A DNA stretch of 48,041 nucleotides from Verrucomicrobiota bacterium (lineage in GTDB: Bacteria > Verrucomicrobiota > Verrucomicrobiia > Chthoniobacterales > UBA10450), in contig QHQA01000203.1 in the NCBI GenBank assembly GCA_003219695.1, forward strand, positions 1 to 48,041, read 5' to 3'. This document shows, piece by piece, positions 4,530 to 40,800 of this stretch. Every line of letters starts with the position of its first letter. Positions within the stretch are counted from its first letter, which is position 1. Below the pieces are notes generated by a model. That model did no database searches. It was not told where the DNA came from and saw nothing but the letters and a program-made list of their open reading frames with translations. The position numbers and the translations under genes were made by a program.

Positions 4530-5111
4530 CTACACGCCGCTCTCCGCGAATCTTCGTGGCAATTCGACCGCTCTACGCAAGAGCCGCAGGTAATGATTCC
4601 GCGAAATTTCAATCCCGCCAAATTGCTGGAGGTGCGGCGTGAGCCATTGCGTATCGAGCAGGACGAATTTGCAGGCGCGCAAATGCTCGACCAGTGCCAC
4701 GAGCGCAATCTTGGAGGCATCGGTCACACGATGAAACATCGATTCACCAAAGAACGCGCCACCCACCGCCACACCGTAAAGTCCACCGGCCAGCCTGCCT
4801 TCTTTCCAAGCTTCGACCGAGTGCGCATGGCCGAGCTCATGCAAACGCGTGTAGCTCTCAACAATCTCGCGGTTGATCCAGGTATCTTTCCGTTTGGCGC
4901 AGCCTTCAATTACTTCCGAAAATGCACGGTCGATGGTGGTTTCAAAAACGCTCCTGCGCAGGAGACGTCGCAACGCATGCGGCACATGAAAATCTTCCAA
5001 GGGGAGGATGGCGCGCGGATCGGGCGAAAACCATTCGATGGAATCGTCTTCCACGGCCATGGGAAAGACGCCCAGCCGGTAGCCTTGAAGCAGAAGATCG
5101 GGGTCGATCAT
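4530..5111 (-). CDS. aat: leucyl/phenylalanyl-tRNA--protein transferase
   Basis: This enzyme moves Leu or Phe from aminoacyl-tRNA onto proteins with N-terminal Arg or Lys, marking them for ClpS/ClpAP in the bacterial N-degron pathway. Family blocks are clear: GYRLGVFPMA, WFSPDPRAILPL (about residues 27-38), FSEVIEGCA, TWINREIVESYTRLHELGHAHSVE (about 76-100), GGLYGVAVGGAFFGESMFHR and a C-terminal LLDTQWLTPHL. At 193 residues it is the short form that lacks the N-terminal extension of the E. coli protein. The start lies a few bases after a GCTTCAAC repeat array. A sigma factor gene follows about 100 bp downstream. Confidence 0.95.
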   Translation of the reverse strand: MIDPDLLLQGYRLGVFPMAVEDDSIEWFSPDPRAILPLEDFHVPHALRRLLRRSVFETTIDRAFSEVIEGCAKRKDTWINREIVESYTRLHELGHAHSVEAWKEGRLAGGLYGVAVGGAFFGESMFHRVTDASKIALVALVEHLRACKFVLLDTQWLTPHLQQFGGIEISRNHYLRLLRRAVELPRRFAESGV

Positions 5112-5118
5112 TATTTAA

Positions 5119-5153
5119 ACGTTGAAGCGTTGAAGCGTTAAAGCGTTGAAGCG
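5119..5153. repeat. GCGTTGAA/GCGTTAAA octamer array
   Basis: Four consecutive octamers of the form CGTTGAAG / CGTTAAAG lie just upstream of the aat start codon. The same array occurs at 18811-18828, 35981-36023 and 40634-40671, always between genes and usually just upstream of a minus-strand start. Confidence 0.85.
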
Positions 5154-5163
5154 GCGACAATTT

Positions 5164-7160: not shown

Positions 7161-8687
7161 TCAGTCCACCCGCGCGATGGCGCTCATGAACTCGGAGAAA
7201 TCTTTTCCGTTGCGCGCAGCGTGATTCAGCGCGTCCAGGCGCGCATCCGTCGCCGCCTCGGGCAATGGAATCCGACATGAATAGGCGCCGTTGGTGAAAA
7301 CGATTTCGTCCCACTGGATCGAGGAAATCTCGTCGTTGAAACGCGCCACAGCGCGGCCGCGGAAAAATGCGCGCGTCGTCTCCGGCGGATTAAAGATCGC
7401 AGCTTTGATCTCCTCCTCGGTCGTAATGCGGCGCATCAAACCTTTGCGCAGCAACTCGTAGTACAACCCGCGGTCGAGATCGAGATTGTGATATTCCAGA
7501 TCGATGGATTGCAACCAGGGATCGCTCCACGAAAGTTTTTCCTCTTCCTGTAAAGTATCCAGCAGGAACTTCTTCGCCGCCCAATCAATGCGGTCGCGCG
7601 CTGCCATCGGCTCGCGCTCGAGGTCGTTGAGGACATTCTCCCATTCGCGCAATATCCATGCGAACTCATCTCCGTCTGGCACGTCCCTGCGCAGCTTGCT
7701 GGCGGCGCGCAGATAAATCCGTTGCACGTCGATGGCGGAGATTTTGCGGCCATCCTTCAGTTCGATGATCCAATCGTAAGTTTGATCGCGGCTGATTGAT
7801 TTGTTGGCGTCCACTGGTTGCGCGATCTCAAGCTGCGGCGCTTCGCCACGTTCGATCAGATCCAGAACTAGGGCTGTGGTTCCGATCTTCATCGCTGTGG
7901 CCCATTCGCTCATGTTCGAATCGCCAAGGATCACGTGAAACCGGCGGTAGCGGCTCGCATCCACATGCGGCTCGTCGCGCGTGTTGATCAAAGGGCGGCG
8001 ATTCATCGTGTCGATGCTCACCACCACGCTGAAAAAATCGGCGCGTTGCGAGATTTGATAAATGCCTGGCTCGCTCTGGCTGCTTTCAGCTTCCACGCCC
8101 ATCTTGCCGGCGCCTGCGTAAATCTGGCGAGTGACGAGAAACGGCAGAATCCCGGCGACGATACGATCCCACGCGATATCGCGGTTCATCAGATAATTGT
8201 CGTGGCAACCGTAACTGTGCCCGGCAAAGTCGGTGTTGTTTTTGTAAAGCCGCACCTCGTAGCCGGGCGGCAACTTCTGATTTCGGCGCCGCGCGCATTC
8301 CGCGATGATGCGTTCGCCGGCTTTGTCCTGTGCCGCGATCTGGCAAAGAGTTGTGCATTCCGGCGTGGAATATTCCGGGTGCGCGTGATCGTTGTAGAAC
8401 CGGGCGCCGTTTGAAAGCACGAGGTCGCTCTTTATTTCCTCGAAGCTCAGCGGCCGGCGTTTGTCGATCTCGTAGTAAGCGGATTCATCCGTATCCTGGA
8501 GCAATTCGCGCGCGCGAAAGCCCCGTGCGTCAAGGTGCGGATCTTCCAGATCATAATCCCATTTCATCAGCGCGCCGTGATCGGTGTAACGCCGCACCAA
8601 CTCGATCGATTCGGCTACGACATCGATCGTGTCAGCACCGCACAGCGTGATGCCGTACTCCGTCTCCAGCCCAAAGACGCGTCTCAT
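7161..8687 (-). CDS. dop: Pup deamidase/depupylase Dop
   Basis: Dop deamidates the C-terminal Gln of Pup and removes Pup from substrates; it shares its glutamine-synthetase-like fold with the ligase PafA. Several features indicate Dop rather than PafA. Glu8 is in GLETEYGI. The motif YNDHAHPEYSTPEC contains Asp100, aligning with the Dop nucleophile Asp (Asp95 in Mycobacterium). The Dop-type segment WDYDLEDPHLDARGF is present, and so is the C-terminal RIDWAAKKFLLD with LSWSDPWLQSIDLEY. Conserved core motifs YKNNTDFAGHSYGCHDNYL, INTRDEPHVDASRYRRFHV and GDSNMSEW are intact. The 508-residue length is normal. AGGA five bases before the ATG is a good ribosome binding site. It follows arc by 50 bp, the order seen in actinobacteria, but no pup, prcBA or pafA is adjacent. 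Confidence 0.95.
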   Translation of the reverse strand: MRRVFGLETEYGITLCGADTIDVVAESIELVRRYTDHGALMKWDYDLEDPHLDARGFRARELLQDTDESAYYEIDKRRPLSFEEIKSDLVLSNGARFYNDHAHPEYSTPECTTLCQIAAQDKAGERIIAECARRRNQKLPPGYEVRLYKNNTDFAGHSYGCHDNYLMNRDIAWDRIVAGILPFLVTRQIYAGAGKMGVEAESSQSEPGIYQISQRADFFSVVVSIDTMNRRPLINTRDEPHVDASRYRRFHVILGDSNMSEWATAMKIGTTALVLDLIERGEAPQLEIAQPVDANKSISRDQTYDWIIELKDGRKISAIDVQRIYLRAASKLRRDVPDGDEFAWILREWENVLNDLEREPMAARDRIDWAAKKFLLDTLQEEEKLSWSDPWLQSIDLEYHNLDLDRGLYYELLRKGLMRRITTEEEIKAAIFNPPETTRAFFRGRAVARFNDEISSIQWDEIVFTNGAYSCRIPLPEAATDARLDALNHAARNGKDFSEFMSAIARVD

Positions 8688-8737
8688 TTAAATCCTGCGA
8701 TTTCCGAGACTACCCGTTCGACGCACCGCTTTGCACC

Positions 8738-10423
8738 TCAAATCACGCCAAACGGTGCGCGTCCACGAGCATCCGAGACCGGTTTTACGGGCGAAATCTT
8801 CACGACGTTTTCCGGGTCGTAATCGATCAGCTTCAACCAGTCTTCGGTGATATCGGTGGTCGGGAAAATGTCGTTCTCCATGTACTCGGCGTTGAAGGCG
8901 AGTTGCAGGTCGGTTTCCCGAATGCCTTCCTCCTGTCGAGTCCCAATGGCTCGTTTGATCGCTATCGCTTTCGCGCGCTCGACGATTGAGGCAATGATGG
9001 CGCCGCTGATGAGATCGCTCCGAAAGAGCGTCTCTTTTCGGCCGCTGCGCAGTGTCACCTCTAAAAATCTGTTTTCATCCCGGCGCGCAAACTGCCAGTC
9101 AACAAACCGCTCGATCAACCGCTCGATCGACGCGCCGATCCCATCCGCTTCCTTTGCCAGCACGCCATCGTAAGGCAGGCCGTCCGTGAGATAGATTCGG
9201 TAAATTTCTCGCGTGCCCAGCTTGTCCGGTCGGTTGACCTTGATTTTTCGATCGATTCGGCCCGGGCGCAAAATTGCCGGATCGATCAGATCGGCGCGAT
9301 TTGAAGCCAGGATAATCACCACGTCGTTGAGCGAATCGATTCCATCCATCTCGGAGCAGAACATCGGCACCAGTGTGGAAAGAATATTCGAATAACGCGA
9401 AGCGCGGCGCGTGCCGAGGATCGACTCGGCTTCGTCGATGAAGAGGAACGGCATGAAACCTTCGCTCTTTTTCTCGCAAGCGGTGGCAAAAATTTCGCGC
9501 ACCATGCGTTCTGATTCGCCCACCCACATGTTGAGAATCTCGGGACCTTTGACGTGCATGAAATATTCGCGCATCTCAGTGCCTGTTTTGTCGCGGAGTT
9601 GCCGCGTCAAATTGTAAGCAGTCGCCTTGCCGATCAGCGTCTTCCCGCAGCCCGGTGGACCGTAAAGCAAAAATCCTTTCGGCGTGGCGTGCTGAAATTT
9701 TTGGAAAAGATCGGGATGCAAAAGCGGCAGCTCGATCGCGTCTTTGATGGCTTGCAGCGCCGCCTCCTGGCCGCCGACTTTTTCCCACGGCAGGTCCGGC
9801 ACGGTGTCGAGATAATATTCGTTGGATTTCGTGCTTGAGAGCATCTCCAACGCCATCCGGTAATTTGAATCGACGCGGACTTCGTCACCTGATTTCAAGT
9901 TCGACTGCACAAGATCGGCGGAGCGTTGCAGCACCATCGAATGCAACCCGTGTTCGGAGCCAACGCGCAACCGGTCCTTGCCCATCACCTCGGTAATTTT
10001 CGTCACCGGGCCGGCTGTCTCGAATCCCAGATCACCGACGATCACGAAAGCTTCGTTGACGAGAACGCGCGTACCCCTTTTCAATTTCGAAAGCGCAATG
10101 CGCGGATCGACGTTGCAGTAATAATCGGCGCCTCCAACGACAATGTGCGCCGTCTCCTTCGAAGTGGCTCCGAGAAACGTGCCAATCCGGTTCGCGGGCG
10201 AAGTGACTTTTTTGATGACTTCCTCGAGCTTCTCAATCATCCGACGCGCCTCGACCATGGTTTCCTGCTGATCGTAAATCTGCGGCCGCAATTCCAACAA
10301 GTCGCGCCGAACCGGATCGCCCGGAGGCAACGATGCGATCACCTGATCGAATGAATCGAGAAGAGTATCCGGAGCCGAGTCCCCAACCCCGTCCTGCAAT
10401 CCCTCGCTGCGCTCGTCGCTCAT
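8738..10423 (-). CDS. mpa: proteasome-associated AAA+ ATPase (Mpa/ARC)
   Basis: In actinobacteria this hexameric ring ATPase binds Pup through an N-terminal coiled coil, unfolds pupylated proteins and feeds them to the 20S proteasome. Here the coiled coil is at about residues 42-72, followed by two OB-like domains (78-190) and the AAA+ module: Walker A GPPGCGKT at 255-262, Walker B FLFIDE with Asp330-Glu331, pore-loop region HVKGPEILNMWVGESE and the arginine-finger region LRPGRIDRKI. The ATG at 10423 is preferred to a TTG five codons earlier. At 561 residues it is shorter than Mtb Mpa. It ends RAPFGVI and lacks the GQYL-type tail that docks to the proteasome, so it may work alone or use another protease. 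Confidence 0.93.
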   Translation of the reverse strand: MSDERSEGLQDGVGDSAPDTLLDSFDQVIASLPPGDPVRRDLLELRPQIYDQQETMVEARRMIEKLEEVIKKVTSPANRIGTFLGATSKETAHIVVGGADYYCNVDPRIALSKLKRGTRVLVNEAFVIVGDLGFETAGPVTKITEVMGKDRLRVGSEHGLHSMVLQRSADLVQSNLKSGDEVRVDSNYRMALEMLSSTKSNEYYLDTVPDLPWEKVGGQEAALQAIKDAIELPLLHPDLFQKFQHATPKGFLLYGPPGCGKTLIGKATAYNLTRQLRDKTGTEMREYFMHVKGPEILNMWVGESERMVREIFATACEKKSEGFMPFLFIDEAESILGTRRASRYSNILSTLVPMFCSEMDGIDSLNDVVIILASNRADLIDPAILRPGRIDRKIKVNRPDKLGTREIYRIYLTDGLPYDGVLAKEADGIGASIERLIERFVDWQFARRDENRFLEVTLRSGRKETLFRSDLISGAIIASIVERAKAIAIKRAIGTRQEEGIRETDLQLAFNAEYMENDIFPTTDITEDWLKLIDYDPENVVKISPVKPVSDARGRAPFGVI

Positions 10424-12302: not shown

Positions 12303-12905
12303 TTAGCTGGTAGGGCGCGACCGCCGGGCGCGCCGAACGCGACTACCCTTAAGCAGCGAGCGGTACATCACGTAAACATCGACGTATCCTTTTTCCGGAT
12401 GGCGAAACGCGCCGGGCAACGTGCCGACGATCTTGAAACCGAGCTCTTGCCAAAGACGAATCGCCGGAATGTTCGTCGAAACCACGAAATTAAATTGTAT
12501 CGCGCGAAAACCGAGCCGCCGCGCTTCGCTCAGACAATGCTCCGCCATGGCACGACCGACCCCCTGCCCGCGCGCGCTGGCTGCGACCATGAACGCTGCA
12601 TTCGCGACATGCGCGCCGCCGCTGGCCTGGTTCGGCCGCAAGATGTATGTGCCAGCAACGCACTGATCTTGCCTATTTGCTGCTTGGGGCGGCGGTGCGC
12701 TCCCTGGGAAGCCAACGGCTTCCCCTACAGACTGTTGATCAAGTTCCGCCACGTACGTGTGTGTGTCAGGCGCAAACCAGTACGCCAGCGCATCCTCGCG
12801 TGAAATCGTGGGATCGAGCGCGTAGGTGTCGCTGGCGGCAACGACCTCACGGAAAATATTCCAGATCGCGTCGTGATCTGCTTTGGTTGCTGCTCGAATT
12901 TTCAT
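12303..12905 (-). CDS. GNAT family N-acetyltransferase with two repeat-derived segments
   Basis: The protein (200 residues from ATG 12905, MKIRAATKADHDAIWNIFREV) has the GNAT acetyl-CoA site: NAAFMVAASARGQGVGRAMAEHCL carries the Q/RxxGxG/A motif, followed by FNFVVSTNIPAIRLWQELGF and the C-terminal GYVDVYVMYR. The substrate is probably a small amine or amino acid (PhnO/YncA-like), which is inference. An upstream in-frame extension is not GNAT-like. Residues encoded by 12680-12730 (VGEAVGFPGSAPPPQA) are a 51-bp repeat inserted in the loop before the core. The last residues ([13 protein letters not shown]) come from a second repeat at 12307-12347. The enzyme core appears undamaged. Confidence 0.9.
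   Translation of the reverse strand: MKIRAATKADHDAIWNIFREVVAASDTYALDPTISREDALAYWFAPDTHTYVAELDQQSVGEAVGFPGSAPPPQAANRQDQCVAGTYILRPNQASGGAHVANAAFMVAASARGQGVGRAMAEHCLSEARRLGFRAIQFNFVVSTNIPAIRLWQELGFKIVGTLPGAFRHPEKGYVDVYVMYRSLLKGSRVRRARRSRPTS
12307..12347. repeat. GGTAG...CTACC element forming a protein C-terminus
   Basis: The element is bounded by GGTAG (12309) and CTACC (12343-12347). Its first 27 bases, 12307-12333, are identical to 36975-37001 inside the lipase maturation factor gene. Here it encodes the Arg-rich tail of the GNAT. Confidence 0.85.
12680..12730. repeat. 51-bp element inserted in frame in the GNAT gene
   Basis: The 51 bases align without gaps to 18330-18380 in the RfbD-like gene, 41 of 51 identical by my count. 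It contains the arms GGGAAGCC and GGCTTCCC and ends CTACAG. On the minus strand it is read in the same frame as the other copy, giving VxEAxGFPGxAxPxP. Confidence 0.9.
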
Positions 12906-12958
12906 TGTTTGCAGCCGAAATTGTAGGACAACTGCTTCGATCGCCGCAATTGCCGGAG

Positions 12959-13555
12959 CTAGCGCAGTGCAAGCAATGCAGCCAGCGCGGCGAGTTTTTG
13001 CTCGGCGCGCCACGATCCCGCACCAGCCGGGTGGAGCCGGCCCAGATGTTGCAACATTCGTCGCACACCATCAATCGATTGTTTCAATTGCGCGGACGCG
13101 CGCGCATAAGCATCGCGCTCCAGTAGAACGTCCGTGGGAATGCGGTGGCGCCGTAAAGCCTCCTCGGTCACCGATCGAAATAGTCGGCCTTCGAAGGTAT
13201 GCGCGCGAATGTGCGGATTTGCAACGGTAGCCGGATCAATCTGGCTTCCTACCACGAGTGCCGCGCGCTGGATTCGGAAACCTCTTTGCCGATAGCGCGC
13301 GAGAAGCGTCGCAATCGATGCTTGGGCAATGCATCGCACCACGCGCTCGCGCCGATTCACTTTTCTCGAGTCGGTCTCCAGTTTTCCCATGGCAGCGTGA
13401 TACGGCTGCCGCGTTTCAGGAAGGCGCGGCTCCGATAGCTCGATTCGTTGGACGTCGCAGAGCTGAGGCGAATCGGCTGAACCTGCCAGCAGCACAGCGG
13501 CCGCCCAACCCGATTTTATTCGAAAACCGAGAGCGGCGGTTTGCGGTTTGGTCAT
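12959..13555 (-). CDS. protein of unknown function, translationally coupled to a protease-like gene
   Basis: From ATG 13555 the product has 198 residues (MTKPQTAALGFRIKSGWAA). This ATG overlaps the stop codon of the upstream gene as ATGA, which strongly supports the start and implies coupled translation; the frame is open 20 codons further. The N-terminal half alternates beta strands (AALGFRIKSGWAAAVLLAG, VQRIELSEPRLPETRQPYHA) and the C-terminal half is Arg/Ala-rich helix (REARRHRIPTDVLLERD-like, ASAQLKQSIDGVRRMLQHLG). The order of strands and helices suggests an RNase H-like or related alpha/beta fold, but no catalytic residues can be assigned. Confidence 0.7.
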   Translation of the reverse strand: MTKPQTAALGFRIKSGWAAAVLLAGSADSPQLCDVQRIELSEPRLPETRQPYHAAMGKLETDSRKVNRRERVVRCIAQASIATLLARYRQRGFRIQRAALVVGSQIDPATVANPHIRAHTFEGRLFRSVTEEALRRHRIPTDVLLERDAYARASAQLKQSIDGVRRMLQHLGRLHPAGAGSWRAEQKLAALAALLALR

Positions 13556-14586
13556 CTGGTTTGAAACGTCACCGGAACAGTCGCTTGCCATCCCTGGCTG
13601 GGCGCGGATTTCCATTGCCGAAGCGTCCTGATCGCCGATTGATCGAACGCTGGGTTCCCCGTGGACTTAATGACCTGGATATTCGTCACGTTTCCCTGCG
13701 GGTCGAACGTCAATCGGAAGTGGCCTGTCCCCGATTGTCCGGGCAGAGAAGCGCCGGGCGGAAAGGCCGGCGCAGGCGCATAGACCAATCGCGGCCTCGG
13801 CGTTGGCCGTGGCGTGGCACGCGCTTCGAGGGCTTCGGGCCAGCGAGCCTCGGTATCAGCCGCAACTCGAGATAATAGTGAATCCAGCGCAGCGGCCGGG
13901 CGCGCAGTGGTCTTTTCTCCTGCCGATGTGACAACGCCAATCACCTCACCATTGTCGTTAACGATAGGCGCCCCAACTGAACTGGCCGGAGTCGCTCCTG
14001 TAATTTCCAAACGGTCCGAGGCTTCCCCTGCGATTGTCGTTTCACGAGCGCTGCCCTCGCTTCCAGCCAGCGCGCTGCCGACTCTTACAACGCTTGCGCG
14101 CGCCGGTACATTGCCTTCTTTGCTTAGCTCGAGAAATGGAACGTGCTTCACGTCGGCTTTCAGGATCGCCAGATCCAAAGCTTTCGAAGCCGCGAGAACT
14201 CCAGTCACGTTGTAGATCCCGCCGTCCCCCGTCTTCGCGACGGCATTGACGGCGCCTTCAATGGCGTGTGCGGTAGTCACGAACTCACCATCCGGTGAAA
14301 TAAAAAAGCCGGTCTCCGTCCTCAACAGATTTCCTTTCGGATCAAACGCCGTCACCCAAATCACGGAAGGCCGGACCCGGGTTTCCAGTCTCGCTAAATC
14401 GGACGATGGACTTTGGCCGCCTTGTGCTTCCGGAGAAGCCAGAGTGATTGGTGACGTCGATTGCGACTGCTGCGCCAGTCGCGATTCACCAAGAAGCTGA
14501 CTCGTCGAATTTCGCGCATACGCGGCGGTCACAAAGACGGCCATGCAAAGCGCGTAGTATCGAACAGCGAGCCGGGTCGGTCTCAT
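13552..14586 (-). CDS. trypsin-like protease domain (serine apparently lost) fused to a TonB C-terminal domain
   Basis: The 344-residue protein has an N-terminal signal or anchor segment (YYALCMAVFVTAAYA, about residues 10-24). A chymotrypsin-fold domain follows at about 65-235: TTAHAI gives His107 and ALDLAIL gives Asp138. Where HtrA-type enzymes have GNSGGP, this protein has SSVGAP, so the catalytic Ser position holds Val204 (Ser203 is adjacent). A Pro-rich linker (RATPRPTPRPRLVYAPAPAFPP) leads to a TonB C-terminal domain (GHFRLTFDPQGNVTNIQVIKSTGNPAFDQSAIRTLRQWK). It is probably periplasmic. It may be a non-catalytic scaffold or sensor; the serine assignment rests on alignment by eye. Confidence 0.85.
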   Translation of the reverse strand: MRPTRLAVRYYALCMAVFVTAAYARNSTSQLLGESRLAQQSQSTSPITLASPEAQGGQSPSSDLARLETRVRPSVIWVTAFDPKGNLLRTETGFFISPDGEFVTTAHAIEGAVNAVAKTGDGGIYNVTGVLAASKALDLAILKADVKHVPFLELSKEGNVPARASVVRVGSALAGSEGSARETTIAGEASDRLEITGATPASSVGAPIVNDNGEVIGVVTSAGEKTTARPAAALDSLLSRVAADTEARWPEALEARATPRPTPRPRLVYAPAPAFPPGASLPGQSGTGHFRLTFDPQGNVTNIQVIKSTGNPAFDQSAIRTLRQWKSAPSQGWQATVPVTFQTR

Positions 14587-14675
14587 GGCAAGCTACAGCA
14601 TTACAGTGTTGAATACGCACGGCAGTATAATCAAGCCGGCAAAAAATTGCGCCTTGGGCCGCGGCGCATGGTGAA

Positions 14676-14840
14676 TCAAACGGGCGCGAAACCTATTGCC
14701 GCTTGAAACTGAACGGCGCGCTCGTGTTTCTTCGCCGCGGCTTTGGTCTTGAATGTGCCCAGATTTCTGCGTTTGCCGGTCTTCGGATTTTTCTTCCGTG
14801 AAGACAACCGATACTTGCCCGATTTCAGTTTCCTGATCAC
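14676..14840 (-). CDS. small basic conserved protein (VIRKLKSGKYRL type)
   Basis: The product is a very basic 54-residue peptide: IRKLKSGKYRLSSRKKNPKTGKRRNLGTF, then KTKAAAKKHERAVQF. This composition matches a family of short Lys/Arg-rich proteins found next to unrelated genes in many bacteria, possibly nucleic-acid-binding. A GTG at 14840 gives a protein starting at the conserved part; the frame is open upstream to a TTG at 14918, with GTG options between, so the start is uncertain. Confidence 0.6.
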   Translation of the reverse strand: MIRKLKSGKYRLSSRKKNPKTGKRRNLGTFKTKAAAKKHERAVQFQAAIGFAPV

Positions 14841-14968
14841 GGCTCCATCGAGTACGCGCAGGCCCGCTACACTCCGCGTGTCCGCAACAATGATCCCCAC
14901 AACACTGGGTGTAGCCAAGTGCGGAGGACCTTCACCGTTGCCAGCCGTTGTTCTCCCCCATCAAATCT

Positions 14969-16027
14969 CTAGCACAGCGCGCCGAGACTCTCGTAGAGTG
15001 CGCGTCTGGTGGCGCGGGCCTGCCTTCTCACCACCTCGAATTGGATCGACATCATGCGCAGTGCAAACGGCAGGAGCGCGCTCTTTTCATGTGGCAGTTG
15101 GACGGCCCCGATGTTGCCGCCGCTGATTTTGCGGAATGGCCACTGATCAAAAAGCCATTCCGCGCCATACGACGCAGGCCACGGCGGCGTCTGGCCAGTT
15201 TCGGCTGCTTTGCGGCCGATGGTGCCCCACTGAATATCGTGCAGCAGGATCCAACCTTCGCTCCTGACACAAGGCGCCACTCGAAGTAAATCAAGGAGCG
15301 GCATCGGGTGGCGATGGTCCGCGTCAATAAAGATAACCCCCAGTTCGTCGCGTTTGGCGATTTGCCAAACAAAAGTCGCATCTCTCGGGGCGTGCAGGCG
15401 AATCAGCGGCACAAGCTCCGGAAACGTCTCCGAAATTTCAAAACCAGTCGGGCGCGTTCTGTCGATGGCGCACTCGACGTTGATGTCGATTGTATCAACC
15501 CAGCTCGCGCCATCGGTTCCATCTTGGCGAAGCAGAGCGGCTGCGATGAGCCCGGCCGAAAAACCGGTCAGCGTTCCAATTTCGATCACGTGTTGCGGCG
15601 CGAGAATGCTGACAAAAGCGGTCAAAAAAAAATAATCGCTCGGTCCAACCGTGCCCGGATGCCAAGTCCGGCGGCGCTTCATGATTGAATCCAGAAATTC
15701 TACCTCGCCCGGCGGCGGTGTTTTGCCAGCATGTCCGAGGATCGCCGCCAATCGTGCGTACCCTGAATTGAAATCGGCCAACGAGTTGATCTCGCAAACC
15801 TCGGCCGTCCTGGGCGGAGCCGGCCTTCGAATGGAACGAATTGCTTCCCGAAGAATTTTGGTCCGGCTGCCGCGGGGCGCGCGACAAACCGCGCCCAACG
15901 CAGTCACCACCGGAAGCTTCATGGCCGCCGCGATTGCGTGATCGATCATAAAAAGCTCGCGTCCGGCTTTTCGAACTTTTCGCAGCCAATCGCGTGCCGC
16001 GTGTGAGAGGTCCCTGATTGTCTCCAT
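14969..16027 (-). CDS. class I SAM-dependent methyltransferase
   Basis: The 352-residue protein starts METIRDLSHAARDWLRK at ATG 16027; the open frame runs 100 codons further upstream but that part overlaps the MauE-like gene in another frame and is not protein-like. The Rossmann motif HVIEIGTLTGFSAGLIAAALL (about residues 170-190) binds SAM, and VIFIDADHRHPMPLLDLLRVAPCVRSEGWILLHD is the Methyltransf_24-type acidic and strand-4/5 region. The substrate cannot be read from sequence; relatives modify sugars or secondary metabolites. It is the last gene of a minus-strand operon, 38 bp after the MauE-like gene. Confidence 0.85.
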   Translation of the reverse strand: METIRDLSHAARDWLRKVRKAGRELFMIDHAIAAAMKLPVVTALGAVCRAPRGSRTKILREAIRSIRRPAPPRTAEVCEINSLADFNSGYARLAAILGHAGKTPPPGEVEFLDSIMKRRRTWHPGTVGPSDYFFLTAFVSILAPQHVIEIGTLTGFSAGLIAAALLRQDGTDGASWVDTIDINVECAIDRTRPTGFEISETFPELVPLIRLHAPRDATFVWQIAKRDELGVIFIDADHRHPMPLLDLLRVAPCVRSEGWILLHDIQWGTIGRKAAETGQTPPWPASYGAEWLFDQWPFRKISGGNIGAVQLPHEKSALLPFALRMMSIQFEVVRRQARATRRALYESLGALC

Positions 16028-16065
16028 CTTCAAAGACGCGAACCTCAGGCGTGCGTTCCGCCTTC

Positions 16066-16602
16066 CTACCGCTCGCTGAGAGCGAAATTTCGCCTGCACC
16101 TGAGCAGCAGAAAAATCACCAGCCCAAACAAAACCAGATCGAACCCCAGATGCGCGGGGAAATTCCAATGTTGGCTGGCGTGCCCGAAGCAACCGCAGGT
16201 GATGTCGAGACCGCGAACCTTTGCAGCGACCGTGGCGATTATGAAGATCGCGATCAGCACCGTTAGAATCGACAACGCGCCGCGATACTGCCGGCGGAAG
16301 ACAAGCCCCAGCCCACAAAAAATCTCGAGCCACGGGAGATAAAACGCGAGCGCGACACTAATGGGCCACGGTAGAATTTTGTAATGATCGATGTCATGGG
16401 CGAACTGGACCGGATCACGTACCTTAAGCACGCCAGCGTAGATGAAAATTGCGGCAATAATAAGATCGAGAACGCGCCAAAAGATGTTTGATGTCCGATG
16501 TTTGAGATCTGATGCAGTTCCACTTGCCGACGTTTGGATGTTCGACGTTGAGAGTTGAACGCCTTGCTCGCGAATACTTTCGGAGTTGGGCGTTTCCCTC
16601 AT
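16066..16602 (-). CDS. MauE/DoxX-like redox membrane protein
   Basis: The 178-residue protein has four transmembrane segments from about residue 42 (FWRVLDLIIAAIFIYAGVLKV, ISVALAFYLPWLEIFCGLGLVF, ALSILTVLIAIFIIATVAA, LGFDLVLFGLVIFLLL). The cysteine motif DITCGCFG lies before the last segment, typical of MauE-family proteins that supply disulfide/thiol redox power to periplasmic proteins. The start overlaps the rhodanese stop as ATGA. The first 40 residues (VQLSTSNIQTSASGTASDL) are polar and translated from repeat-like DNA; the word at 16536-16550 recurs at 23074-23088. They may not belong to the ancestral protein. Confidence 0.85.
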   Translation of the reverse strand: MRETPNSESIREQGVQLSTSNIQTSASGTASDLKHRTSNIFWRVLDLIIAAIFIYAGVLKVRDPVQFAHDIDHYKILPWPISVALAFYLPWLEIFCGLGLVFRRQYRGALSILTVLIAIFIIATVAAKVRGLDITCGCFGHASQHWNFPAHLGFDLVLFGLVIFLLLRCRRNFALSER

Positions 16603-17027
16603 TTGTTCTTCTTCAGCCAGGCTTCCCAGCCGCCCTCAAGCACGAACACATCCGGAAGCTGCGCTTCCTTGCGTAGCCGTTCGGCCACTTCGCGGGCGAG
16701 ATCGCAGCTTTGAGCGCTGCAATAGACAACCACCTTTTTCCCCGGTGACCACACAGCCAAAAACTGGGGCAACAATTCGTTCCAGCGGTCTTCGTTCAAT
16801 AAAATTGCACCAGGCACATGATCGCGCGCGAACTCGGCATCGGGCCGAGCGTCGATCCAAATCGCGCTGTCACCCCACTGGCGCGCTTGATCGACGCTAA
16901 CCATTTGCGAAGGCGGAATTGGTGATTGCCAGGAGATCTTGTCGCGAAAATAGATTGCTTGCCCTACGCCGGGAAGAAGCGAGAACGCTGCGAGAATAAG
17001 CGCCTGGCGCAGCAGTGAAAATTTCAA
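16599..17027 (-). CDS. exported rhodanese-like sulfurtransferase
   Basis: The 142-residue product has an N-terminal hydrophobic segment (LLRQALILAAFSLLPGVGQA) that should export or anchor it. A rhodanese domain follows: WGDSAIWIDARPDAEFARDHVPGAILL and the active-site loop VVVYCSAQSCDLAREVAERL, with catalytic Cys in YCSAQSC and a second Cys five residues on. It ends LEGGWEAWLKKNK. Such proteins carry persulfide sulfur. The start codon is a TTG at 17027 that overlaps the stop of the upstream DUF1573 gene (TTGA), and the stop overlaps the MauE-like start (ATGA). The operon suggests periplasmic sulfur or thiol redox work. Confidence 0.88.
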   Translation of the reverse strand: MKFSLLRQALILAAFSLLPGVGQAIYFRDKISWQSPIPPSQMVSVDQARQWGDSAIWIDARPDAEFARDHVPGAILLNEDRWNELLPQFLAVWSPGKKVVVYCSAQSCDLAREVAERLRKEAQLPDVFVLEGGWEAWLKKNK

Positions 17028-17770
17028 TGTGTTTGATCAGCCGGAGCGGTGGGACGACCCGGGGCCGTCGGAGCAACTGGAGCAATCGGAGCTTTCTGAC
17101 CAGGCGGAGCGACCGGCGCAGTCGGGGCGTTGGTTATGCGCGCGGTCGCGTAAAAGACCTTCGGTGAGTCCTCCGGCTGAATCGTTAGCGTCGAGGCGAT
17201 AAGGTTGGTCGTTTCCTTGGGTTGCACATCGATTTTGAACTCCCCCTTACCGGTTTCCTCGATCTTGGTTTGAAAATCCGGACTCGATGAGGTGACCTTG
17301 ATATGGTTCACGGTAAAATCCTTGCCCGCTTTCACCGAGATCGTCTTTGGCTCCGGCTTGTCGCCCTGCTTCCAAAAGACAAACGTCGGGCTGATCTCCA
17401 GTTGCTGCGGGATCACGGCCTTGAGCGTCAGCACAGTTTTTGAATTTGTCTGCTCGTCGGTTTCCACCGTCACGGTTTTGACCTGCGTGCCGGTGCGGTC
17501 GCCGATGTTGAATGTGGCCGTGATCTCGCCTTTTTCGCCTGGCGGCACTTCGTCCTTCTGTGTTTGCGCAGTGGTGCAACCACAGGAGGCGTGAACAGAC
17601 TTGAAGTGCACCGGCGTTTTCCCGGCGTTCTGATATTTGAAATGGCCGATCGCCTGTTTATCGGTGGCAGTCGGATGCAGCTGCACGGATGTCTGCTCCC
17701 ATTTCAATTCGGCGTGCGCGCTGAGACAGGTGATGATCGACAGGCTAAAAACAAGGATTTGCGTTTTCAT
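17024..17770 (-). CDS. DUF1573 periplasmic protein
   Basis: The 248-residue protein has a Sec signal peptide (MKTQILVFSLSIITCLSAHA) and an immunoglobulin-like DUF1573 domain: FKYQNAGKTPVHFKSVHASCGCTTA contains the hallmark CGCT pair, followed by PPGEKGEITATFNIGDRTG. A second beta domain (about residues 125-205) and a Pro/Ala-rich tail (PTAPVAPPGQKAPIAP) end the protein. The tail is low-complexity and may face the envelope. Its stop codon is shared with the rhodanese start and its start overlaps the RfbD-like stop (ATGA), so it is translated with both. The family's biochemical role is unknown. Confidence 0.9.
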   Translation of the reverse strand: MKTQILVFSLSIITCLSAHAELKWEQTSVQLHPTATDKQAIGHFKYQNAGKTPVHFKSVHASCGCTTAQTQKDEVPPGEKGEITATFNIGDRTGTQVKTVTVETDEQTNSKTVLTLKAVIPQQLEISPTFVFWKQGDKPEPKTISVKAGKDFTVNHIKVTSSSPDFQTKIEETGKGEFKIDVQPKETTNLIASTLTIQPEDSPKVFYATARITNAPTAPVAPPGQKAPIAPVAPTAPGRPTAPADQTH

Positions 17771-18792
17771 TTTTTGGAGTAGAAGCGCGTAATATAATCA
17801 GCAACCGCGTCTCGCCAAGCGCGAGGTGGCGTGCCGGTCAGCTGCGTGTATCTGGCCGTGGAAAGCACGGAGTAAACGGGCCGGCGCGCGATCCAGTCGG
17901 CTATGTTTTTTAGTTTGCGCGCGCCGACGGTCTTTGCTTTCAGAGGAAGACCAGCTTCGTGACAACAATCCAGGGCCCATTGCGCGTATTCCTGCCAAGT
18001 GCATTCGCCGGCATTGGCGAAATGCAAAATGCCACCGTAATCGCCTACGCTGTAGCCCGGATCAGTGATCCCGGTGGGAATGCCGGAGCCATGGCCGGCG
18101 GTCGTGCGTGGGCCGGGACCACCGGTTCCGGCTACAGCAACGCCCGTAAAAAAACGCGGGAGCATCTCGGCGATATCGCGCGTGTACGTCGGCGTGGAAA
18201 ATTTGTCCGCGATTGCATCGACTTGCCGCTCTTCCCGCGCTCGCTTGATGATTGCGTCAATAAAGCTCGGCCGATCGGGACCAAAGACCCAAGAGACGCG
18301 CACGACGAGATGCCGAGGTACTGGGCTGTCTGTAGGGGACGGCGTTGCAGTCCCGGGGAAGCCATCGGCTTCCTCTACAGTAGCGAGTACATTTTTTTCT
18401 CCGGCCAGTTTCGATTGGCCATAGACGCTAATCGGGTTCGCTTTGTCTTCTTCGGTGTACGGTTCGCGTTTCTCGCCATCGAACACGTAATCGGTGCTGA
18501 AGTGAATCAGCTTCGCGCCCTTCTCGCGGCAGATTTTTGCGAGAACACCCGGCGCTTCGCCGTTAATCAGAAAAGCGCGGTCGCGCTCTGTCTCGCAAAG
18601 ATCGACATTCGTGAACGCCGCAGCGTTGATCAGCACATCGAGATTCGTCGCGTTCAGTTTCTCGCGCAGATCATCCAAATTCGACAGATCGAGTTGGGCG
18701 TGATTAAAGCTGGAAACGTCGAATTTGTCCTGATATTCCCGCATGAGCGCCGCGCCGAGTCGCCCGCCCGCGCCAACAATCCCAATTTTCAT
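17767..18792 (-). CDS. dTDP-4-dehydrorhamnose reductase-like protein (RfbD family) with two repeat insertions
   Basis: The family reduces dTDP-4-keto-rhamnose to dTDP-L-rhamnose for cell-surface polysaccharide. The Rossmann motif GIVGAGGRLGAALM is at residues 4-17, with INAAAFTNVDLCE and the catalytic HFSTDYVFDG, then YxxxK in VYGQSKLAGE. Later blocks are RVSWVFGPDRPSF, DKFSTPTYTRDIAEM, LHFANAGECTWQEYA. Two segments are foreign: TVEEADGFPGTATPSP (18330-18380, 51 bp) between the YxxxK and VSWVFG motifs, and VAVAGTGGPGPRTTAGHGSG onward (18049-18138, 90 bp). Both keep frame. It is the first gene of a five-gene operon; the neighbours are redox, not sugar, genes, so the exact substrate is uncertain. 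Confidence 0.88.
   Translation of the reverse strand: MKIGIVGAGGRLGAALMREYQDKFDVSSFNHAQLDLSNLDDLREKLNATNLDVLINAAAFTNVDLCETERDRAFLINGEAPGVLAKICREKGAKLIHFSTDYVFDGEKREPYTEEDKANPISVYGQSKLAGEKNVLATVEEADGFPGTATPSPTDSPVPRHLVVRVSWVFGPDRPSFIDAIIKRAREERQVDAIADKFSTPTYTRDIAEMLPRFFTGVAVAGTGGPGPRTTAGHGSGIPTGITDPGYSVGDYGGILHFANAGECTWQEYAQWALDCCHEAGLPLKAKTVGARKLKNIADWIARRPVYSVLSTARYTQLTGTPPRAWRDAVADYITRFYSKK
18049..18138. repeat. 90-bp element inserted in frame in the RfbD-like gene
   Basis: Ends GCTGTAGCCCGG and CCGGCTACAGC are inverted repeats. The interior contains GC-rich arms (CCGGAGCC / GGCCGGCGG). Length 90 bp is divisible by three and the encoded insert (VAVAGTGGPG to TDPGYS) is Gly/Thr/Pro-rich. 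Its end resembles the shorter element at 37436-37463. Confidence 0.8.
18330..18380. repeat. 51-bp element inserted in frame in the RfbD-like gene
   Basis: Bounded by CTGTAG and CTACAG and containing the arms GGGGAAGCC and GGCTTCC. It aligns ungapped with 12680-12730 in the GNAT gene (41 of 51 identical) and is read in the same frame. Confidence 0.9.
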
Positions 18793-18810
18793 CAGTGGTC
18801 AGTGGTGGAC

Positions 18811-18828
18811 GCGTTGAAGCGTTAAAGC
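18811..18828. repeat. GCGTTGAAGCGTTAAA array copy
   Basis: A short copy (two octamers) of the array found at 5119, 35981 and 40634, lying just upstream of the RfbD-like start codon. Confidence 0.7.
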
Positions 18829-18898
18829 CGGAACAGAAACGACAGCCCCGCGCTCCGGTTTAGCTTTTCAAGTTTTAACCAATCAACGTGAGCAAAAC

Positions 18899-35912: not shown

Positions 35913-35980
35913 TGGTAATCTCCAGTTGATTTTCGCCTCAATTATCCGCGCGCTTTGCTAAATGGGCAAACGCTCAGTTT

Positions 35981-36104
35981 CGTTAAAGCGTTGAAGCGTT
36001 TAAGCGTTTAAGTGTTTTAAGCGTCCAAGAGTTCAGAGGAAAAGCCGCTTGAACTCCGAAAGCCTTCGCGAGCGGGGCGCTTCAACGTGTTTAATGCTTT
36101 AACG
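35981..36104. repeat. GCGTTGAA/GCGTTAAA array with an inverted copy
   Basis: CGTTAAAGCGTTGAAGCGTTTAAG units fill 35981-36023; GCGCTTCAACG and CTTTAACG in opposite orientation lie at 36077-36104. The unit matches those at 5119, 18811 and 40634. The array lies between the DUF883 gene and infA. Confidence 0.8.
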
Positions 36105-36396: not shown

Positions 36397-38298
36397 TTAC
36401 TGCAACTGATCGAGAGAGATCGCAGGCAAATACTCGCGAAGCTCCTGACGTTTCCACCACGCGCCGGTCTGGCGAAGTTCGTTCACGGTCGTGAACCGGT
36501 AACGATAAAACATCGCGCGAATATAGCGGGGCGGCTTGTCTGGAAACGGATTTCGCGCAAGCAAGCCGCTCACGTCGTGCGAGCCTTGGAGCAGCCGGAA
36601 GATCAACCCCACTAGCCACGAATTTCCTCCCGGCGTTTCCAGAGCGGCAAACCACATCTGCCAGTCGAGACGTGGCTGGTGCGGCGCACACCAGCCCGGC
36701 GCCCCTTTCACGTCGCCTGGTTTCCATTTGAATTCGTACGGGAGCCAATCCATCCCGTCCGCACTGCCTTCGATGATGATTTCGTCGCGGTCCTTTGTCA
36801 TCACGCGAAACAGTCCGTAGCCATTCAGGATCCGAAACGCTTCGAGCTGTTCATAAAGCTTTGCCAGTGCGCGCGGCGGCCGGGCCTGCGGCTTGAACGC
36901 GCTGAAGATCAGCCACGCATTGATCGGCAGCGTCACAATAATCACCGCAACCGCCGCATAACTGCACAATCGATCTGGTAGGGCGCGACCGCCGGGCGCG
37001 CTGATGGTCCGTGCGCGGCCGGCCTCCCGCAACCGCGGAATCCTTACCGCCGCGTCATCAAAAAGCAACAAACACAAAGCGATCGTGAGCAGATTGAAAA
37101 AGCAATAGTTGCCGGTGAGACCGATCACGAGCTGAAGAAAAATCATCAGTCCGGCAGCGATAAGTCGCGGTCGTCGCGGCGCCCAGATTAAAAAAGGCAC
37201 GACGATTTCCACCACGAGACAAACCCCGACCGAAAAATGCTTAAACCATTCCGGACTTTTATCCGCCCACCAGCCAAACACCGTGGGCAACGGTTGCGAC
37301 CAGTAGTGATAATCGAGTGCCGTCAGGCTCCACCAGGAATCATCGCCGCTGGTCAGTTTCACCACGCCAGACATCAGCATCAGTTTGAAAAGAAGAAACT
37401 TGAGCAAAAACAAACCCGCGCTTGAAACCGGAGCCGCTGTAGCCGGGGGCGATGACCCCGGCCACCATATTAATCCCGTTGGCCGAAGCTGCCACGGCGC
37501 GAGAAAGATCGATAAGAAGCCAGTCTCCAGCAGGAGAACGTCCCATTGAAAATTGAGAAAGATTTGTCCGGCAATCGTGAGTGACAGGTAAAAGATAAAA
37601 AGCGCAACGAGCGAAAGTGCCGGGGCGACCCCGAAAACTAAAAGCAACGAGAGAACAACGCCGCCGCCGCAAAGGAAATGAAGAAAGCCGTTGCTGAAGT
37701 CGAACCAGCAGAGCGTGGGCAAAAAAGTGTAGGCGCCTCGTCCAAGTTGTGCGCGAACTGCCGGCAAGAATTGATTGACCGGCGACATTCCGTCGCTCCC
37801 GATGAGTCCGTCCACTTGCACCCACAGCGAGACGAACGCGATCAGGTAAATCACGCCGAGCGTACGCAAGAACCAGCGGCGCGCCCAAAAATAAGTTGGC
37901 GGGCGCACATCTTTGCCCGAGAGCAAACGCGTCACTGCCGCTGCAAGGTTCCGATGGCGAGCAATAAAGTTATAGCCGGTTTCGGAAATCGCCGCGAATC
38001 CGGGAAGGTGATCATAGCTCCACGCCAGCCATTTTCTCGAAGCTCGATGTCCTAAGGAGCGATAGATCGCTTCCGCCGCGAAAAACACTTTACCATCCGG
38101 CTCGATGAAAACCATCGAGCGTTTGAACTGTTCGATTGAAATTTCGGGAAAGCGACCGGCTGCCTCCTGATAGATGGCGTAATCGACGTTGCCACCGGTG
38201 CTTTCGCGCCAGCGTTCGATCCACAGCCGGCAAAAATCACATTCGCCATCCCAGATGAGGAGCGGCTTTGGCGGTGGATTGGAAACGCGGAGGCGCAT
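36397..38298 (-). CDS. DCC thiol-disulfide protein fused to lipase maturation factor (LMF1-like)
   Basis: The 633-residue protein joins two domains. Residues 8-120 are a DCC/DUF393 domain with the CxxC site DGECDFC (Cys20, Cys23), usually a thiol-disulfide oxidoreductase. From about residue 145 the protein matches lipase maturation factor: multiple membrane segments, [80 protein letters not shown] and the C-terminal [27 protein letters not shown] and [17 protein letters not shown]. It would help disulfide-bonded exported enzymes fold. Two segments come from repeats at 36975-37001 and 37436-37463. Confidence 0.9.
36975..37001. repeat. 27-bp identical repeat inside the lipase maturation factor gene
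   Basis: The 27 bases beginning CTGGTAGGGCGCGACC are identical to 12307-12333. Here the minus-strand frame reads [11 protein letters not shown] in a loop after [11 protein letters not shown], just before a transmembrane segment, while the other copy is read in a different frame. Confidence 0.85.
37436..37463. repeat. GCTGTAGCCGG hairpin inside the lipase maturation factor gene
   Basis: GCCGGGG and CCCCGGC arms with a short loop follow CTGTAG. On the minus strand this is CCGGGGTC to CCCGGCTACAGCG, very like the end of the 90-bp element at 18049-18138. It encodes the Pro/Ala loop [11 protein letters not shown]. Confidence 0.65.
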
Positions 38299-39241: not shown

Positions 39242-40627
39242 CAACTCTAACTCCACGCCCGGCGTAGGCACAATCACCTCTGAGTCGGGAAGCTCGGCTG
39301 TCAAAGTCGCGCGCATCCACTCCACCGCGGGCGGATCGCCATGCACGAGAACGATTTTTCGGGGCGCGAGTTTCGTCGCGTAATCGACAAGCGCTTCGCG
39401 TGTGGAGTGCGCGCTGAACTGGAACTGTTCGATGTTGCAACGGATGCGCTGAGCTGGTTTGTCGGGATCCAGAGCGACCTCGCCCTCCGTGCCTGTGTCC
39501 CGCAGAAGACCGGCAGGCGATTTCGGATTGGCGTAGCCGACGAAGAAAATCGAGTGCTGCTGATTTTCAATTAGTCGCCGGGCAAAAACGTTCGAGAGCG
39601 TTCTGGGGATCATCATGCCGCTGGAGAGGACGTAAGCGCGTCCTCCGCGCAGCGGCGCATCTCGGATAGTTTCGTCATTCAAAATGAAGGGCGCCACTTC
39701 CCTCATAAGTTGCAGGCGAGGCAATTGCCGGCGAGTCATGTGCGCGCGGCGATCGTAAATATCGGTGAACTTCGAGCTGAGACCGCCGATATAGATTGGA
39801 AATTCGGGCAGGCGCCGCTCGCGACGGAATTTGTAAAACATCGCCAGCACTTCCTGTGTTTTGCCAAGCGCGAAAACGGGTATGAGCACGCATGACCCAC
39901 GCTCAAATGCAGCGGCGAGCGCCTCTGCCAGGCGTCGCTCTTCGCCAGCGCGCGTCCAGTCCGCCGGCTTGGCGTGATCGCCTCGCGTGCATTCCACGAT
40001 CAGGACATCGATCTTCTCTTGAGGGAAGATCGCCGCTTCCATGATCGTTTGATCGTCGAAATTGACGTCGCCAGTGTAAAAGACCGTTTGGCCTTCGGCG
40101 CGCAGCAAAACTCCTGCCGAGCCAAGCACGTGCCCTGCATCAAAAAACTCGAATGTCAGCCCCGAAATCCTTTGGGGCTGCGGCGCCCGTTCGCCTGAAA
40201 TGGAGATACGCTGGCGTAGCGGACACCAGCGCCACCGTTCCGATGCGCGATCGGTTTCGCGATGCGTGAAAAGTGGATACAATCCCGCGACTGGGGGACC
40301 GATCTCCTCGCGTTGTCGGGTCATCACGTTGACGGAGTTGTGCAAAAGCACACTGCCGACCTCGGCCGTGGCCTCCGTCATGAAAACGCGCGCGCCGGGA
40401 AAGCGTCGCATTGCCAGTGGCAACGTGCCGATGTGATCCTGGTGCGCGTGCGAAATCAGAATCGCTTCGATCTCGCGGCCCGCGGTTAGCTTGAAATTAG
40501 GCAGCGCTTCCTCGCCTGTGTTTTTGGGATGCATCCCGCAATCGAGCAACAGCCGATGGCGACCAATCTCAAGATAGTACGAGTTCGCGCCGATCTCCGT
40601 GCGGCGGGTGAGATTAATAAATTTCAA
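39239..40627 (-). CDS. MBL-fold beta-CASP RNA/nucleic-acid hydrolase
   Basis: The 462-residue protein combines a metallo-beta-lactamase core with a beta-CASP cap, like CPSF73-type and RNase J-related enzymes. Zinc motifs are ISHAHQDHIG (HxHxDH), DAGHVLGSAG (motif 3), and YTGDVNFDD (motif 4). The beta-CASP part has VLIPVFALGKTQEVL and SSGMMIPRT. QFSAHSTREALVDY carries the late His and KIVLVHGDPPAVEWM the last one. It probably cuts RNA. A segment of about 20 residues (ERWRWCPLRQRISIS) before the DAGH motif looks inserted. The start is a TTG at 40627 just after a repeat array; the stop lies in a repeat. Confidence 0.9.
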   Translation of the reverse strand: MKFINLTRRTEIGANSYYLEIGRHRLLLDCGMHPKNTGEEALPNFKLTAGREIEAILISHAHQDHIGTLPLAMRRFPGARVFMTEATAEVGSVLLHNSVNVMTRQREEIGPPVAGLYPLFTHRETDRASERWRWCPLRQRISISGERAPQPQRISGLTFEFFDAGHVLGSAGVLLRAEGQTVFYTGDVNFDDQTIMEAAIFPQEKIDVLIVECTRGDHAKPADWTRAGEERRLAEALAAAFERGSCVLIPVFALGKTQEVLAMFYKFRRERRLPEFPIYIGGLSSKFTDIYDRRAHMTRRQLPRLQLMREVAPFILNDETIRDAPLRGGRAYVLSSGMMIPRTLSNVFARRLIENQQHSIFFVGYANPKSPAGLLRDTGTEGEVALDPDKPAQRIRCNIEQFQFSAHSTREALVDYATKLAPRKIVLVHGDPPAVEWMRATLTAELPDSEVIVPTPGVELEL

Positions 40628-40633
40628 TTCGTG

Positions 40634-40671
40634 GAAGCGTTGAAGGGTTAAAGCGTTGAAGCGTTAAAGCG
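40634..40671. repeat. GCGTTGAA/GCGTTAAA array
   Basis: GAAGCGTTGAAGGGTTAAAGCG repeated about four units, lying directly before the start of the beta-CASP hydrolase gene. Same family as at 5119, 18811 and 35981. Confidence 0.85.
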
Positions 40672-40800
40672 CTGCTCAGGCAAGACAAAAGCTAACCTGT
40701 CGAAATCGCTCCAAGGTGGATCGGCTTTTCCGAAGGCGATGGCTATCTCCGAAGGCGCTGGATGATCCCTCAAAAGCCAGGCGGGCGAGAAGACACTCAC

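What the first reader, a model, noticed from the sequence alone, without database searches (positions are those of the whole stretch)
12680..18380. Same 51-bp element inserted in frame in two unrelated enzymes
12680-12730 in a GNAT acetyltransferase and 18330-18380 in an RfbD-like reductase align over 51 bases without a gap, 41 identical by my count. Both are 17 codons and read in the same frame, giving VxEAxGFPGxAxPxP. The copy in the reductase has CTGTAG / CTACAG ends. Both sit where a surface loop would tolerate extra residues and the enzyme motifs on either side are intact. This looks like a protein-coding palindromic element, comparable in idea to Rickettsia palindromic elements but of a different sequence.
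Basis: partly seen in the sequence, partly recalled or inferred. Interest (0 to 1): 0.85.

Follow-up and report, generated by a model that had tools for sequence, protein, structure and literature searches.

The report
Mobile DNA hairpins inserted inside enzymes
A 51-base mobile DNA hairpin pair of a known kind (a doublet of GTAG-tagged REP repeats), more often found outside recognised genes, has landed in frame inside several enzyme genes of a soil bacterium and its relatives, adding a short stretch of amino acids to each protein.

Summary
In detail: the two stretches share 41 of 51 bases; the best unrelated placement in the window is 27. Both are in-frame insertions: 27 of 29 aligned relatives lack the RfbD one and 20 of 29 the acetyltransferase one. 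The element is two GTAG-footed hairpins head to head, the layout of a REP doublet. It matches in 31 of 35 congeneric genomes. In five relatives a REP-associated tyrosine transposase (RAYT) gene is bracketed by this REP, at the place of window 8687-8742, which lacks it. Of 75 copies examined (of 88 listed), 23 lie in nine recognised genes; for 52 no recognised gene was found across them. So it is not a dedicated protein-coding element but a REP doublet that sometimes survives inside genes. In-gene GTAG REP dimers were reported in 2013, most in the verrucomicrobium Opitutus terrae. Less expected: the same in-gene site is filled in scattered species, in both orientations. In RecO, loss alone cannot explain the empty alleles, because the bases the insertion replaced are present there. 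New member of a known kind; transposition is inferred.

The parts
12680..12730 (-). 51-nt GTAG REP doublet inserted in frame in the GNAT acetyltransferase; one end decayed
   Evidence: 41 of 51 identical to the second copy; covariance-model hit (it was in the training set); absent from 20 of 29 aligned relatives
18330..18380 (-). 51-nt GTAG REP doublet inserted in frame in the RfbD-like reductase
   Evidence: in the training set; absent from 27 of 29 aligned relatives; 1vl0 and 3sc6 align on either side of it
12306..12905 (-). GNAT acetyltransferase gene carrying the first copy
   Evidence: Pfam Acetyltransf_1 matches residues 38-157, across the insert; Foldseek best hit 4h89
17767..18792 (-). 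RfbD-like dTDP-4-dehydrorhamnose reductase gene carrying the second copy
   Evidence: Pfam RmlD_sub_bind in three stretches; PDB 1vl0, 3sc6
18050..18137 (-). Second in-frame palindromic insertion in the same RfbD gene: REP doublet of another family (GTAGCCGGGATCRGTGATCCCGG type); ends read by eye
   Evidence: extra residues about 216-252 relative to most aligned relatives; a REP of the same type brackets a Y1_Tnp gene at G000:C106:55692 (L015)
12307..12336 (.). Single GTAG REP of a third family at the 3' end of the GNAT gene; second copy at 36975-37004
   Evidence: direct repeat D9; the same REP lies on one side of a Y1_Tnp match in L018
8687..8742 (.). Position (right edge 8742 to 8771, depending on the relative) at which five relatives carry the cognate RAYT gene bracketed by this REP; neither REP nor RAYT here in the window
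   Evidence: BLASTN synteny of L256-L260 (earlier) and sequence

Best explanation
The 51-nt element is a non-autonomous head-to-head doublet of GTAG-tagged REP hairpins (a BIME/REPIN-like unit). Layout: CT-GTAG, hairpin GGGGAAGCC-nnn-GGCTTCCC, a short linker, hairpin GGGACGGC-nnn-GCCGTCCC, CTAC-AG. Inferred mechanism: a cognate HUH tyrosine transposase (RAYT) recognises GTAG plus the hairpin in single-stranded DNA, cuts at the CT beside it and inserts copies elsewhere. Most copies persist outside recognised genes; inside genes only those survive that keep the frame and fall in a tolerant loop or linker. The TAG inside CTGTAG is a stop in one of three phases on each strand. The phase that reads GTA as Val gives a Gly/Ala/Pro/Ser-rich peptide, and 21 of 23 in-gene copies use it. 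Shown: structure, copy distribution, in-frame insertion by comparison with relatives, RAYT bracketed by the REP in relatives. Inferred: transposition by that RAYT, the CT cut, tolerance of the added residues. No RAYT bracketed by this REP was seen in the window's genome, so its copies are probably inherited relics or were made by a transposase since lost or not assembled.
For: Structure counts on 14 copies: 90.8% of cells paired, covariation score 0.150 against 0.094 in shuffles, 0 of 500 reaching it. Matches in 31 of 35 congeners at E <= 0.001. A RAYT at 75-100% identity to the G034 protein is bracketed by inverted copies of this REP in 5 of 5 genomes (G034, G028, G003, G009, G020), while RAYTs at 52-57% (G006, G000, G001, G004) lie beside other REPs, chiefly GTAGGGCAAGC and GTAGGGCGGGC types. 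The G034 RAYT's only PDB hit below E 0.5 is E. coli TnpA-REP 4er8, E 7e-7. Model-match counts are higher in the 5 genomes with the RAYT: mean 19.2 against 7.1 in the other 30, p = 0.002, not corrected for phylogeny or completeness. Alleles without the element in relatives. Pfam matches run across the insert in the GNAT, DAO, DUF2851, MFS, AMP-binding and M48 proteins, lie on both sides in E2 and RfbD, and reach only the near side in RecO.
Against: No RAYT bracketed by this REP was seen in 15 own-genome RAYT loci examined; two of them (L008, L016) have a copy of this palindrome on one side only. The genome is about 93% complete. A target-site duplication at the GNAT site was tested on 5 of 6 forward copies and not supported (p 0.09-0.83), and RecO lost about 17 target bases, so insertions are not clean. 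Two of the five structure measures do not stand out from shuffles: pairs changed on both sides 50 of 500, further pair types 134 of 500. No transposition has been observed. All 14 model-training copies are in-gene copies and the examined copies are high-scoring ones, so the in-gene share is biased upward.
Confidence: 0.85

Rival explanations
1. A dedicated protein-coding palindromic element like Rickettsia RPEs, selected to live inside genes.
For: 23 of 75 examined copies are in recognised genes, and 21 of these 23 use one phase.
Against: For 52 of 75 copies no recognised gene was found across them: 26 have no spanning ORF of 105 aa or more with 25 aa on both sides, and of the 28 such ORFs at the other 26 sites, 20 (19 sites) were scanned with no domain across the element. 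It carries GTAG, not CGTC, and has a RAYT in relatives.
Confidence: 0.06
2. Ancient single insertion in each gene with repeated losses, rather than repeated insertion.
For: Forward GNAT copies share one insertion point in G000, G003, G007, G025, G034 (read by eye; the G011 row was blank there); the three RecO copies share boundaries; the RfbD copies of G000/G031 and G034 have similar flanks. RfbD copies are slightly more clustered on the tree than shuffled labels (2 changes against 2.9; 33-44 of 500 as low).
Against: A single gain would need about 10 losses for GNAT and 6-7 for RecO. The RecO insertion replaced about 17 target bases; the other 25 of 28 aligned loci (23 genomes) have a segment of matching kind there, which loss cannot recreate. 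The two reversed GNAT copies sit 6 nt upstream of the forward ones (by eye).
Confidence: 0.2
3. Short-tract recombination between species spreads filled alleles.
For: Scattered distribution with shared boundaries; Fitch changes about equal to shuffled values (GNAT 6 against 6.3-6.4, RecO 3 against 2.9, E2 5 against 5.6).
Against: Apart from sister pairs (G000/G031 in RfbD, G020/G024 in E2, G011/G034 in GNAT) the gene trees do not group the filled alleles; branch supports were not examined. Orientation differs among filled alleles of GNAT and RecO.
Confidence: 0.25
4. Conserved residues of the enzymes or chance similarity, not an insertion.
For: None found.
Against: 27 of 29 (RfbD) and 20 of 29 (GNAT) aligned relatives lack the residues; best unrelated match 27 of 51.
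Confidence: 0.01

Closest known systems
In-gene GTAG REP dimers (Di Nocera, De Gregorio, Rocco 2013, PMC3733652), most numerous in Opitutus terrae (Verrucomicrobia)
   Same: GTAG-tagged hairpins, head-to-head dimers, inside enzyme genes, 20-30 encoded residues for dimers or groups, repeat-specific REPtrons
   Different: Their Figure 1 with the 24 family consensus sequences and their supplementary tables were not available to me, so I could not check whether this REP is among them. Here the same in-gene sites are compared across congeneric genomes, with both orientations
E. coli BIME / REP y-z doublets and TnpA-REP (PMC8266576 passages; PDB 4er8)
   Same: Two unlike REPs in inverse orientation, GTAG foot, CT beside it, RAYT homologous to TnpA-REP
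   Different: Hairpins with 7-bp near-perfect stems and 3-nt loops; some copies inside genes
Rickettsia palindromic elements (RPE)
   Same: Palindromes inserted in frame in unrelated proteins
   Different: Reported as CGTC-tagged; CGTC repeats reported as not associated with transposase genes (PMC3733652, passages and section 16)

Membership tests
GTAG REP doublet (BIME/HH dimer) | GTAG directly at the foot of a hairpin | tested here: met
   Both ends of the consensus; decayed at one end of the 12680 copy
GTAG REP doublet (BIME/HH dimer) | Two REPs in inverse orientation, GTAG outside | tested here: met
   Three helices counted on 14 copies, 90.8% of cells paired
GTAG REP doublet (BIME/HH dimer) | Multicopy, mostly between genes | tested here: met
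   31 of 35 genomes; no recognised gene found across 52 of 75 examined copies; the sample leans towards in-gene copies
GTAG REP doublet (BIME/HH dimer) | Cognate RAYT bracketed by the same REP | tested here: met
   Met in 5 relatives; not seen in 15 own-genome RAYT loci
GTAG REP doublet (BIME/HH dimer) | Processed and moved by the RAYT | not testable with these tools
   Needs biochemistry; CT beside GTAG is present in the sequence
Rickettsia palindromic element | CGTC tag | tested here: not met
   Ends are CTGTAG/CTACAG
Rickettsia palindromic element | In-frame insertion in unrelated proteins | tested here: met
   Nine genes
RAYT (TnpA-REP) | HUH motif and homology to TnpA-REP | tested here: met
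   DHVHW in the G034 protein (motif recognised from memory); PDB 4er8 E 7e-7; Pfam Y1_Tnp

The most novel reading that the evidence does not exclude
Certain codon positions (RecO, GNAT, E2 linker, RfbD) are recurrent landing sites. Independent RAYT-driven insertions of the same doublet, in either orientation, repeatedly graft a Gly/Pro/Ala/Ser-rich linker into the same loop in different species. The doublet's symmetry leaves the same phase open on both strands, so REP doublets act as ready-made linker inserts, usable in either direction, in protein evolution.
Probability: 0.3. Interest if true: 0.7.

Novelty: new member of a known kind. Interest (0 to 1): 0.45.

Why it matters
It gives a natural experiment on how a mobile hairpin enters working genes: filled and empty alleles in related species, both orientations at one site, and a candidate transposase whose neighbouring REP changes with the transposase clade. 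It also warns that protein alignments and gene calls in these soil Verrucomicrobia will show species-specific inserts that come from mobile DNA.

Tried and rejected
Target-site duplication at the GNAT site: 21 extra bases accompany the forward copies; tested on 5 of 6 forward copies against shuffles, p 0.09-0.83, not supported. In-place inversion of one ancestral GNAT insertion: the reversed copies lie 6 nt upstream of the forward ones, so it is not favoured. For RecO, where both orientations share boundaries, in-place inversion or conversion is not excluded. Whole-gene transfer as the cause of the scattered RecO copies: the gene tree does not group them. Rfam: only a tRNA in the window at gathering thresholds. 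AlphaFold of RfbD too poor to place the insert. Named organisms: the one scan of genome contigs, with an exact pattern, gave one contig, Verrucomicrobia bacterium isolate AV94 QHMS01000220.1, with the same length and copy position as G034:C127. The Pfam search of the own genome did not list a RAYT at G000:C58 that the protein search found. The covariance model prefers the reverse strand for the G021 RecO copy, while reading its GAAG hairpin makes it forward; I use the latter. The last part of the script (pairwise identities) stopped with an error and was not repeated. In one search the G011 GNAT row came out blank and G022, G024, G039 and G056 lacked an anchor; for those I rely.
Full report
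Observation. Sliding the 18330 copy over both strands of the window (95,982 placements), the only placements above 27 of 51 are the two copies themselves, in either orientation. Both lie in minus-strand genes and are read in the same phase.

Insertion. I searched 58 genomes (the own one and 57 relatives) with each protein; 54 of 58 matched for RfbD and 37 of 58 for the acetyltransferase. The searches return at most 30 loci, so I aligned 29 relatives for each. For RfbD, 27 of 29 lack the insert; G031 and G034 have it. For the acetyltransferase, 20 of 29 lack it, 5 have it in the same orientation (G003, G007, G011, G025, G034), 2 have it reversed but still in frame (G014, G016: VGDGVAVPGKP and VGDGVALPGKP), and 2 (G027, G031) have other short insertions there. 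The two RfbD structures printed (1vl0, 3sc6) align on either side of the insert, as does the closest solved GNAT, 4h89.

What it is. The consensus is CTGTAG GGGAAGCC-nnn-GGCTTCCC n GGGACGGC-nnn-GCCGTCCC CTACAG: two hairpins with GTAG feet pointing outward, a head-to-head REP doublet. On the 14-copy alignment 90.8% of cells pair and the covariation score exceeds all 500 shuffles; two other measures (pairs changed on both sides, further pair types) do not stand out (50 and 134 of 500). The folded consensus is more stable than all 200 shuffles (z = -7.2). A covariance model finds matches in 31 of 35 genomes of the genus at E <= 0.001. Listed copies often appear on both strands, and only 150 first-look candidates per genome were scored, so the counts per genome are rough. 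In the own genome a 22-base pattern of one REP with up to 3 mismatches has 43 sites against 2 for the reversed-pattern control; these include related REP families.

Transposase. The own genome has 14 Y1_Tnp matches. Three loci are bracketed by GTAG REPs of other families (L013, L015, L016); L015 has the type seen in the second RfbD insertion. Two (L008, L016) have a palindrome of this family on one side only. A further own-genome RAYT at C58 has other REPs (L262); one more weak match listed (C200) was not examined. RAYT genes bracketed by inverted copies of the 51-nt element's REP occur in G034, G028, G003, G009 and G020, all at one syntenic place corresponding to window 8687 to 8742-8771, where the window has neither REP nor transposase. 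Homologues at 52-57% identity (G006, G000, G001, G004) lie beside other REPs, chiefly GTAGGGCAAGC and GTAGGGCGGGC types. The G034 protein's best PDB hit is E. coli TnpA-REP (4er8, E 7e-7; the only other hit listed has E 0.58). The five genomes with this RAYT have more model matches (mean 19.2 against 7.1 in 30, Mann-Whitney p = 0.002, not corrected for relatedness or completeness).

Inside and outside genes. The cut listing shows 88 distinct sites, of which I examined 75; the 13 left out are low-scoring. The 75 are 60 fetched contexts, 4 other own-genome copies, 8 GNAT and 3 RfbD copies. Twenty-three lie in nine recognised genes: GNAT 8, RfbD 3, the E2 subunit of a 2-oxoacid dehydrogenase 3, RecO 3, an M48 peptidase 2, and one each in a DAO oxidoreductase, a DUF2851 protein, an MFS-like transporter and an AMP-binding enzyme (Pfam was run on one protein per gene). 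Of the other 52, 26 have no spanning ORF of 105 aa or more with 25 aa on both sides. At the other 26 sites there are 28 such ORFs; I scanned 20 of them (19 sites) with Pfam and no domain crossed the element; 7 sites were not scanned. A gene of an undescribed family cannot be excluded for these. All 14 training copies of the model are in-gene copies and the listing is by score, so 23 of 75 overstates the true share. In-gene lengths are 51 (15 copies), 52 (6), 55 and 61; the others range from 48 to 63. In 21 of 23 in-gene copies the phase reads GTA as Val; the two M48 copies use another phase.

Same sites, scattered species. In RecO, G000 and G021 carry the element with the GAAG hairpin first and G011 with it second, at the same boundaries, replacing about 17 target bases; the other 25 of 28 aligned loci (23 genomes) have a segment of matching kind there. 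The nearest relatives with RecO data (G031, G030, G034) are empty, and the gene tree does not group the filled alleles; branch supports were not examined. For GNAT, RecO and E2 the number of changes on the trees is close to that of shuffled labels (GNAT 6 against 6.3-6.4 with 7 of the 8 filled alleles in the tree; RecO 3 against 2.9; E2 5 against 5.6). For RfbD it is slightly lower (2 against 2.9; 33-44 of 500 shuffles as low), since sisters G000 and G031 share it. The E2 linker has the full element in G000, G020 and G024, remnant-like forms in G034, G028 and G019, and another repeat in several further species. Repeated insertion at tolerant sites, or exchange of short tracts, fits better than one old insertion with many losses, at least for RecO; I cannot separate the first two.

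Wider pattern in the same genome. Another REP family has inserted in frame in PurL (residues 146-177, lacking in PDB 3viu) and in GcvP (about 16 extra residues near 217-233 relative to 4lgl). The RfbD gene of the window has a second REP-doublet insertion (18050-18137), and the acetyltransferase gene ends in a REP of a third family (12307-12336).

Literature. Seen: abstract, passages and sections 5, 14 and 16 of PMC3733652; passages of PMC8266576; other papers only as search listings. Di Nocera and colleagues reported GTAG and CGTC REPs inside genes, more than half of the inserts being dimers or grouped repeats encoding 20-30 residues, with the highest number of GTAG cases in Opitutus terrae, and REPs at about the same site of recB in two Xanthomonas. 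So the kind is known. The listings of my five searches showed no paper whose title or abstract start treats this family in soil Verrucomicrobia; subscription journals are mostly not held. That TnpA-REP cuts at CT sites selected with GTAG is from passages of PMC8266576.

Noticed in passing
window 18050-18137: Second in-frame REP-doublet insertion in the same RfbD gene, of the GTAGCCGGGATC type, with a Y1_Tnp gene bracketed by that REP type elsewhere in the genome (L015).
   Followed up: partly
window 12307-12336 and 36975-37004: Third REP family; the first copy forms the C-terminal tail of the acetyltransferase, beyond the point (about residue 185-196) where hits in relatives end, many at a stop codon.
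   Followed up: partly
window 43028-43085: Doublet of a fourth REP family (GTAGGGCGTCTGTGTCAGACGCC); the same REP brackets a RAYT homologue in G030 (L265).
   Followed up: partly
L044 (G000:C66) and L040 (G000:C34): PurL and GcvP of the same genome carry in-frame insertions of yet another REP family.
   Followed up: yes
L201-L228, E2 linker region: Several relatives carry a different in-frame repeat (KADLSAVASAKAE-like; DNA like TTGTCCGCCGTAGCC...GGCGAAGGCGGA) in the linker where others carry the 51-nt element.
   Followed up: no
L085 (G031), acetyltransferase: A perfect short palindrome (GAACTTGACTGC-TTAAA-GCAGTCAAGTTC) lies where sister G000 has the element; possibly a scar.
   Followed up: no
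window 5104-5161, 18796-18837, 35965-36022, 40622-40679: Short arrays of an 8-bp unit (GTTGAAGC/GTTAAAGC).
   Followed up: no
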